Assembly (NCBI RefSeq): GCF_002379365.1
Contig: NZ_JQIU01000008.1
Location: forward strand, 2,495,682-2,528,432
Length of the DNA stretch: 32,751 nucleotides
Source of the DNA: Brachyspira sp. G79
GTDB lineage: Bacteria; Spirochaetota; Brachyspiria; Brachyspirales; Brachyspiraceae
Direction of reading: 5' to 3'
Shown: one piece after another, positions 15,537 through 17,558 of the stretch
Numbering within the stretch: the first letter of the stretch is position 1
Layout of the letters: the number at the start of each line of letters is the position of its first letter
The notes under the pieces: generated by a model
The model's input: the letters and a program-made list of their open reading frames with translations, nothing else
Databases searched by the model: none
Told to the model about the DNA's origin: nothing
Translations under genes and position numbers: made by a program

Positions 15537-16154
15537 TTAAGAAATATTTATAATTGCTTCATTGTCATTCTTTCTATAATCATCATATTTTAATTTAATT
15601 ATATTAAGTTTATTGCTATTAAAAAATTTATTTGGTATAACATTTTTTAAATATATTTGACTTTGTTTCCAATTATCAATATCATACTTCATTAGTTGTT
15701 GCTTAGAAGGAATAAGAGTTGAAAGATTTTTAGTTAAACTACTGTCATCATGAAAAGAAACATATAAATCTATTTTATTAATATCCAAATGCAATGGAGA
15801 TAATACTGTCATTACTCTTAAATAGCCATTTATTAATTGATATGATAATTTGTTAATATTACTATCTGTAATAGCCGATTTCATTTCAATAATATCTAAT
15901 TTATATCCATTGATATTTTTTGAAATCAAAATAATATCCGATGAGTTTCTAAATGATAAATGATTAAATTTATTATTGCCTTCAATATTTTTTATTAAAA
16001 TACATTCATTATAAGGAATATTAATATTATATCTTACATCAATATTATCTATATTCTCATTATAAATAAACTGACTACTATCTACAATATCAAAATCAAA
16101 AAAATTATTATAATATTTATTTAGCTTTTCTATTTTTTCGTATAGCTCTCTCAT
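15537..16154 (-). CDS. Small protein with PD-(D/E)XK-nuclease-like signature, partner of the ATPase
   Basis: No family is recognised with certainty. The 205-residue product has D73 (SSDIIL), then after 16 residues E90-M-K92 (DIIEMKSA). This is followed by a helix with YQLINGY. Together these match the D ... (D/E)-x-K pattern plus the downstream Q-x-x-x-Y helix seen in RecB-like PD-(D/E)XK nucleases. I infer a metal-dependent nuclease fold. Length is small but adequate for one such domain. I prefer the ATG at 16154, four bases after the ATPase stop (16159), over the ATG at 16190 that lies inside that gene; neither has a strong ribosome site, so coupling to the ATPase is likely. Codon use is as AT-rich as the neighbours. 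It could also be a nuclease-dead or unrelated effector. Confidence 0.55.
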   Translation of the reverse strand: MRELYEKIEKLNKYYNNFFDFDIVDSSQFIYNENIDNIDVRYNINIPYNECILIKNIEGNNKFNHLSFRNSSDIILISKNINGYKLDIIEMKSAITDSNINKLSYQLINGYLRVMTVLSPLHLDINKIDLYVSFHDDSSLTKNLSTLIPSKQQLMKYDIDNWKQSQIYLKNVIPNKFFNSNKLNIIKLKYDDYRKNDNEAIINIS

Positions 16155-16158
16155 ATTT

Positions 16159-17558
16159 TTAATTATCCAAATCTTCAATAAAAGCTTCAAATTCTTCTGA
16201 TGACTGCATTAAGTAATTATGGAATGTAGGAGCTTGAAATCCGTATTTACTTCCTTTTATTTCTGTTATTTCAGTAAATCCGTCTTCTTTTATATCGAAT
16301 TGATACATTCTCACTTTATCTTCTGAAATTAAATCATCTTCATCATAATTATATTTTTTAATCAATTCTTTTTTTACATCTTCTTTATTGTTATTTAATT
16401 TAATCATATTATTTATATGCTGAACAATAGTATCGCTATGAGTAGTTATCATTACATTAATGCCAGAATTAATTAACTTTATAAAAAGCCTAGTTAATTG
16501 CTGCTGCAGCTTTGGATGCAAAGATATTTCGGGCTCTTCCATAAGTAATTTTCTTTTTATAAATCCATATTTCAAAAATAAATATAAAGGTGCTAGTTCT
16601 GTTACAACAGCCGATGATAGATACATTTGAAACTCTAATTCTGTATTTTCTGGTTTATAATATATATTCTTAGTTTCTTCATTTATCATTATCTTACCAA
16701 AGAGCATATTCTTCTCAATGAAATCTAACATTAAATATAACTTTTTTGTCATATGTTCAATATCATTTTTTTGTTTGGATAACTCATCAAAATTATCTAA
16801 AAAGTCCATAATAGGTCTTGATAAATATTGATTATTTTTTTCAGCATATCGGTCATACTTTGAAGCTCTTGCAGAAGCAGATATATCATTTCTTGATAAT
16901 AAAAAACCAGTCCTTGATACAGGTAAAAAAGTCTTTAATTCATTACCAATAATATAACGATTATTCAAATAATTATTAACAATAAAATAAACAACTCTTT
17001 TAGAAACAAATATAACATAGTTAGAGTAGTTATATATAATACTTGTTCTATCACCATAATAATTAGCTATAGTAAATATATTATATTCTTCATCATCTTT
17101 ACATTCATTTTCTTTTTTACTCTAAATTTTATCTCTCTATCATAAAATTCTAATTTTATATTTTCTAATTTTATTTCATTATCAGAATTAAATATGTAAT
17201 TTATCACTTCATTGGAATGTTTATTCAAAAGTAAGTTAAATAATTCTATAAAAATATCTATTTCTTCAAATGATAATTCAACTTCCTTATCAAAATCCAA
17301 GTTATTTATATAATTTTCTATAATAGATTTTAATTTTTTATATTCATCTAATTCTTCAATATTTTTTTCATCTTCAAATATTATATTAATTATTTTTTCT
17401 ATATATCTCATTAATCCATAAACTAAAGTCATTAAATAACTTTTTCCGCTATTGTTATCACCTATAAATAAAGTAAATGGAGATAATTCAATTTTAGCTT
17501 CTTTTATTTTCGCAAAATTTTTTACATATAGAGTTGGATATTTAATATTTTCAGACAT
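16159..17558 (-). CDS. AAA/ABC-type ATPase (RecF/OLD-like), reading frame interrupted by one -1 frame change
   Basis: One ATPase gene read in two frames. The first frame (17558-17067) has FIGDNNSGKSYL near residue 32-43 (Walker A). The second frame (to 16159) has LPVSRTGFLLSR, LLMEEPEISLHPKLQQQL (Walker B and the SLHP D-loop region) and VMITTHSD (switch histidine). These are the marks of single-polypeptide ABC-like ATPases of the OLD/RecF type found in defence systems. At 17118-17112 the zero frame reads gtA AAA AAG. Moving back one base there opens the second frame with no stop through to 16159, giving about 466 residues. The second half has no good start of its own (TTG at 16968). It is either a frameshifted gene or one using -1 ribosomal slippage. 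The promoter is at 17597-17624 and no clear ribosome site is visible. Confidence 0.75.
17112..17118 (-). promoter_or_regulatory. dnaX-type slippery heptamer A AAA AAG at the frame change
   Basis: In the zero frame the minus strand reads gtA AAA AAG, the heptamer used for -1 slippage in E. coli dnaX. A -1 slip here continues GAA AAT GAA into the frame of the ATPase C-terminal half. GAGAG lies about 14 nt upstream as a weak internal Shine-Dalgarno-like stimulator; no strong downstream hairpin was seen. Loss of one A from the run explains the same data. Confidence 0.45.

What the first reader, a model, noticed from the sequence alone, without database searches (positions are those of the whole stretch)
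16159..17558. ATPase gene split at a dnaX-type slippery site: programmed -1 frameshift or recent mutation
The two halves of one ABC-like ATPase (Walker A in one frame; Walker B and the switch histidine in the other) join without a stop if the ribosome slips -1 at A AAA AAG (17118-17112). The heptamer is in the correct zero-frame phase (gtA AAA AAG), the exact arrangement used by E. coli dnaX. A purine-rich GAGAG lies about 14 nt upstream. Slippage would make a short 163-residue product with Walker A only and a full one of about 466 residues. One lost A in the homopolymer gives the same picture, so both readings must be kept.
Basis: partly seen in the sequence, partly recalled or inferred. Interest (0 to 1): 0.65.

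Follow-up and report, generated by a model that had tools for sequence, protein, structure and literature searches.

The report
Defence ATPase broken by lost base
A bacterial phage-defence-type gene looks split in two because one base is missing from an A-rich stretch, most likely a reading error in this draft genome (or a very recent mutation), not a programmed ribosome trick, so the finding is ordinary.

Summary
In detail: a 163-aa ORF with Walker A (17558-17067, minus strand) and the Walker B/switch-His half (to 16159) join in the -1 frame at an in-phase A AAA AAG (17118-17112). The programmed-frameshift reading fails. All 20 homologues checked in other Brachyspira genomes, including three syntenic orthologues 88-92% identical, have one continuous frame, and the three syntenic ones lack the heptamer there. 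The window is one base shorter than they are, exactly at the heptamer. There is no downstream RNA structure (z = -0.13), and both halves look like one constrained gene (dN/dS 0.1-0.26). Most telling, this scaffolded draft carries the same kind of lesion, a small deletion usually at an A-run, in about 3% of matched genes. These include single-copy smc and cysS, and ribD, alr and an aminotransferase. The relatives show almost none. A base undercall is therefore likeliest; a real recent deletion is the main rival. The gene is the ATPase of a two-gene OLD-ABC-ATPase plus D...ExK-nuclease-like pair resembling PD-T4-4/WonAB. In passing, this ATPase family in Brachyspira has near-identical ends and exchanged, roughly 50%-identical middles, which is more interesting than the frameshift.

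The parts
17067..17558 (-). 5' part of the ATPase gene, zero frame, 163-aa ORF with Walker A (GDNNSGKS)
   Evidence: Pfam AAA_15 8.8e-10
17112..17118 (-). A AAA AAG heptamer in zero-frame phase; site where the window is one base shorter than syntenic orthologues
16159..17112 (-). 3' part of the ATPase gene, -1 frame, with Walker B (LLMEEPEISLHP) and switch His (TTHSD); -1 frame is open from 17121
   Evidence: Pfam AAA_15 1.1e-13; PADLOC PD-T4-4_A 5.1e-35
16940..17130 (-). hypervariable segment of the ATPase: ~90% identical to genome G014 but only 52-63% to B. hampsonii, whereas most of the rest of the gene is 86-98% identical to B. hampsonii
15537..16154 (-). partner gene, 205 aa, intact; conserved D...(D/H)xxExK pattern typical of PD-(D/E)xK nucleases; start codon a few bases below the ATPase stop
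   Evidence: no Pfam, PADLOC or NCBIfam match

Best explanation
The two ORFs are one ordinary ATPase gene, the sensor/ATPase of a two-gene OLD-ABC ATPase plus nuclease pair. It appears split because one base is missing at an A-rich stretch. The missing base is most likely a base-calling or assembly undercall in this scaffolded draft genome, so the living strain probably has an intact gene and no frameshifting is needed. Shown: the continuous frame in relatives, a deficit of exactly one base at the heptamer, and recurrent deletions of the same type in housekeeping genes of this assembly. Inferred: that this particular deletion is an error rather than a real mutation.
For: All 20 homologues checked from other species of the genus are open over the whole ATPase. 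The syntenic orthologues in G014 (92.0% nt identity), B. hampsonii 30446 (88.8%) and G023 (87.9%) are continuous and one base longer precisely here. In 800 kb of this genome compared with B. hampsonii, 13 of 294 matched genes are split. Nine of these are clean small deletions, mostly at A-runs, and alr was found at a looser cut-off. They include smc at a quarter of its length (TIGR02168) with no second full-length copy, and single-copy cysS (TIGR00435), intact in the other genomes of the genus. The reverse comparison gives 2 of 296 (one beside an N gap, one a 37-base repeat deletion). G014 against B. hampsonii gives 0 of 40 and 0 of 43. The rate is about one per 32 kb of coding DNA, i.e. one per window. 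The contig is a scaffold with 18 N gaps in 400 kb, and the window is one gap-free piece between two of them. dN/dS is 0.10-0.26 in both halves, equal to that between intact orthologues.
Against: No reads could be examined. Such defence genes do decay: the nuclease partner carries a nonsense codon in B. hampsonii, and the partner beside a second ATPase copy in this genome has another. Two of the listed broken genes have two deletions each, so they may be true pseudogenes.
Confidence: 0.62

Rival explanations
1. A real, very recent one-base deletion in this strain inactivated the ATPase. The system is off: the Walker-A-only fragment lacks Walker B, the switch His and the C-terminal region to which the nuclease is thought to bind.
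For: Sites with A-runs are mutational hot spots (own knowledge). Related pairs show nonsense codons in the nuclease gene. The deletion sits at the edge of a segment that differs between alleles. In WonAB, ATPase-dead WonA abolishes protection and lowers WonB level (PMC12137116).
Against: The same lesion type in smc, cysS, ribD and alr of the same assembly makes an error more likely. No sign of relaxed constraint.
Confidence: 0.32
2. Programmed -1 frameshifting at A AAA AAG makes a short and a full-length ATPase, as in dnaX.
For: Heptamer in correct phase, -1 frame open through, purine-rich GAGAG 14 nt upstream.
Against: No homologue checked has the split layout, and the syntenic relatives lack the heptamer at this place. 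Downstream RNA folds no better than shuffles (z = -0.13). The same kind of break recurs in unrelated genes of this assembly.
Confidence: 0.02
3. The deletion is real, but unprogrammed slippage of ribosome or RNA polymerase on the newly formed A6G run lets a little full-length ATPase be made.
For: A AAA AAG is a known slippery sequence. Rescue at A-runs is known in AT-rich endosymbionts (own knowledge).
Against: Requires a real deletion. Spontaneous slippage is 1e-4 to 1e-5 during canonical translation (PMC9307594), and there is no stimulator here.
Confidence: 0.04

Closest known systems
PD-T4-4 (ATPase PD-T4-4_A plus nuclease PD-T4-4_B), E. coli ICE-borne defence system (PMC9519451)
   Same: Intact orthologue of the window gene matches PD-T4-4_A over its whole length (E 4.4e-44); two-gene ATPase + small protein order.
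   Different: Partner does not match any PADLOC model; the window ATPase is frame-broken as sequenced.
WonAB / 'OLD-ABC ATPase + novel REase' operons (PMC12137116)
   Same: OLD-type ABC ATPase followed directly by a small PD-(D/E)xK-like protein (about 470 and 205 aa here).
   Different: No direct sequence comparison with WonA/WonB was made here; function untested.
E. coli dnaX programmed -1 frameshift
   Same: A AAA AAG in phase gtA AAA AAG.
   Different: No conserved heptamer, no downstream structure, no conserved split; one base missing relative to every syntenic relative.
A-run base undercalls in draft assemblies
   Same: Isolated one-base deletions next to A-runs, including in housekeeping genes.
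   Different: Reads were not available, so the error itself is inferred.

Membership tests
Programmed -1 ribosomal frameshift gene | slippery heptamer in zero-frame phase | tested here: met
Programmed -1 ribosomal frameshift gene | split layout and heptamer conserved in orthologues | tested here: not met
   20 homologues have one open frame; the aligned syntenic orthologues lack the heptamer at this place
Programmed -1 ribosomal frameshift gene | downstream stem-loop or pseudoknot | tested here: not met
   MFE -9.3 against -9.0 +/- 2.4 for shuffles, z -0.13; pseudoknots not modelled
Programmed -1 ribosomal frameshift gene | both products made | not testable with these tools
   needs profiling or mass spectrometry
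PD-T4-4 / WonAB-like ATPase + nuclease pair | OLD/ABC-type ATPase with Walker A, Walker B and switch His | tested here: met
   intact orthologue: PD-T4-4_A 4.4e-44; motifs aligned across 14 homologues; the window copy has them in two frames
PD-T4-4 / WonAB-like ATPase + nuclease pair | adjacent partner with PD-(D/E)xK active-site pattern | tested here: inconclusive
   conserved D and ExK in the window partner and most homologues, but no family match and the fold prediction failed (pLDDT 36)
PD-T4-4 / WonAB-like ATPase + nuclease pair | anti-phage activity needing both genes | not tested
   experiment
Draft-assembly base undercall | same lesion type recurs in genes that should be intact, in excess over related assemblies | tested here: met
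   9 clean small deletions in 294 matched genes against none of that kind clear of gaps in 296 in the reverse comparison; smc, cysS, ribD, alr among those hit
Draft-assembly base undercall | reads disagree with the assembly | not testable with these tools
   no reads held

The most novel reading that the evidence does not exclude
The deletion is real and slippage at the new A6G run keeps a low level of defence ATPase, acting as a reversible on/off or low-expression state for a phage-defence operon.
Probability: 0.03. Interest if true: 0.4.

Novelty: not a real feature. Interest (0 to 1): 0.12.

Why it matters
It shows that an in-phase slippery heptamer and a stop-free -1 join are what a lost base in an A-run looks like in an AT-rich draft genome. 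Such hits should be screened against orthologues and against the assembly's own frameshift rate first. It also flags this assembly: genes such as smc and cysS will be mis-annotated as broken.

Tried and rejected
Programmed frameshift: rejected on orthologues, missing heptamer, missing structure. Structure prediction of the partner (shallow alignment) and of the B. hampsonii ATPase (single sequence) gave pLDDT 36 and 32 and was not used; no fold search was run on them. Family scans of the partner in Pfam, PADLOC and NCBIfam gave nothing. A search for papers on frameshifts in Brachyspira gave a genome comparison that was not followed up.

Full report
Observation. On the minus strand a 163-codon ORF (17558-17067) carries Walker A. 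From 17121 the -1 frame is open to 16159 and carries Walker B and the switch histidine. AAAAAAG at 17118-17112 is in the phase gtA AAA AAG, and a -1 slip would give 466 residues. The two frames overlap openly for only about 50 bases.

What the gene is. Both halves match AAA_15 and PD-T4-4_A of PADLOC. The intact B. hampsonii orthologue matches PD-T4-4_A end to end at 4.4e-44. A few bases below the ATPase stop starts a 205-aa gene with a conserved D...ExK pattern. This is the plan of the PD-T4-4 and WonAB systems: an OLD-ABC ATPase sensor followed by a PD-(D/E)xK nuclease (PMC9519451, PMC12137116). Function is inferred from that resemblance. The partner matched no family model and its fold could not be predicted.

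Orthologues. Nearly every Brachyspira species searched has some homologue. The 20 copies checked closely are continuous over the ATPase. The three nearest lie at the same place, next to the pyruvate:ferredoxin oxidoreductase genes, in genomes G014, B. hampsonii 30446 and G023. All three are one base longer than the window exactly at the heptamer and have no A6 run there. A few homologues do carry an in-phase AAAAAAG elsewhere in the gene without any split. Downstream RNA folds no better than shuffles. dN/dS is 0.10-0.26 in both halves, the same as between intact orthologues. Hence there is no conserved programmed frameshift, and the lesion is either very recent or not real.

Error or mutation. 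The contig is a scaffold with many N gaps (18 in 400 kb), and the window is one gap-free piece. Of 294 B. hampsonii genes matched at 80% or more in 800 kb of this genome, 13 are split. Nine of those are clean small deletions, most of them beside A-runs; several of the rest lie at N gaps. In the other direction only 2 of 296 are split, one at a gap and one by a 37-base repeat deletion. G014 against B. hampsonii gives none in 83 comparisons. A Fisher test on ten events (including alr, found at a looser cut-off) against one gives p = 0.006. Genes hit include smc, broken at a quarter of its length with no other full-length copy; single-copy cysS, intact in the other genomes of the genus although one copy there is a contig fragment; ribD, alr and a class I/II aminotransferase. 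A viable strain is unlikely to have lost all of these, so most are probably undercalls. The expected number is about one per 32 kb of coding DNA, i.e. one in a window of this size. The ATPase deletion fits this set. It could still be a real deletion, because the nuclease partner carries nonsense codons in B. hampsonii and beside a second, gap-interrupted copy of the pair in this genome.

Verdict. The gene is an ordinary, mostly intact defence-type ATPase. The split is a one-base loss, more likely in the data than in the cell. In either case it is not a programmed frameshift.

Side finding. The Brachyspira ATPases of this family have a constant 5' end (about 150 bases, through Walker A) and a constant 3' end (about 400 bases, with Walker B and the H-loop), with middles of about 900-1000 bases that fall into several types. 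G024 and G009 are 100% identical over the 3' end but about 52% identical in the middle, with sharp borders. G010 against G008 shows the same at a different upstream flank. The window's own allele shows a smaller version, a segment of about 200 bases. This points to exchange of the presumed sensing part by recombination through the catalytic ends.

Noticed in passing
L015-L020, ATPase genes of genomes G010, G024, G025, G009, G008, G015: Constant ends and exchanged middles: first ~150 and last ~400 bases up to 100% identical between species, ~1 kb middles only ~50-60% identical, with sharp borders. Suggests recombination swaps the sensing part of a PD-T4-4/WonAB-like ATPase.
   Followed up: partly
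window 17130-16940: Two-allele hypervariable segment in the ATPase: window and G014 share one type, B. hampsonii and G023 the other, in otherwise closely similar genes.
   Followed up: partly
G000:C8 1825001-2625000 (loci L052-L071, L102-L121): This assembly has recurrent small deletions, mostly at A-runs, in housekeeping genes (smc, cysS, ribD, alr, an aminotransferase) and many N gaps; its annotated pseudogenes need caution.
   Followed up: yes
L049:8781-9287: In B. hampsonii 30446 the nuclease partner has an in-frame stop after residue 168 of about 205 while its ATPase is intact.
   Followed up: no
L009:3989-6145: A second copy of the pair in the same genome is interrupted by an N gap in the ATPase and has a nonsense codon in the partner gene.
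   Followed up: partly
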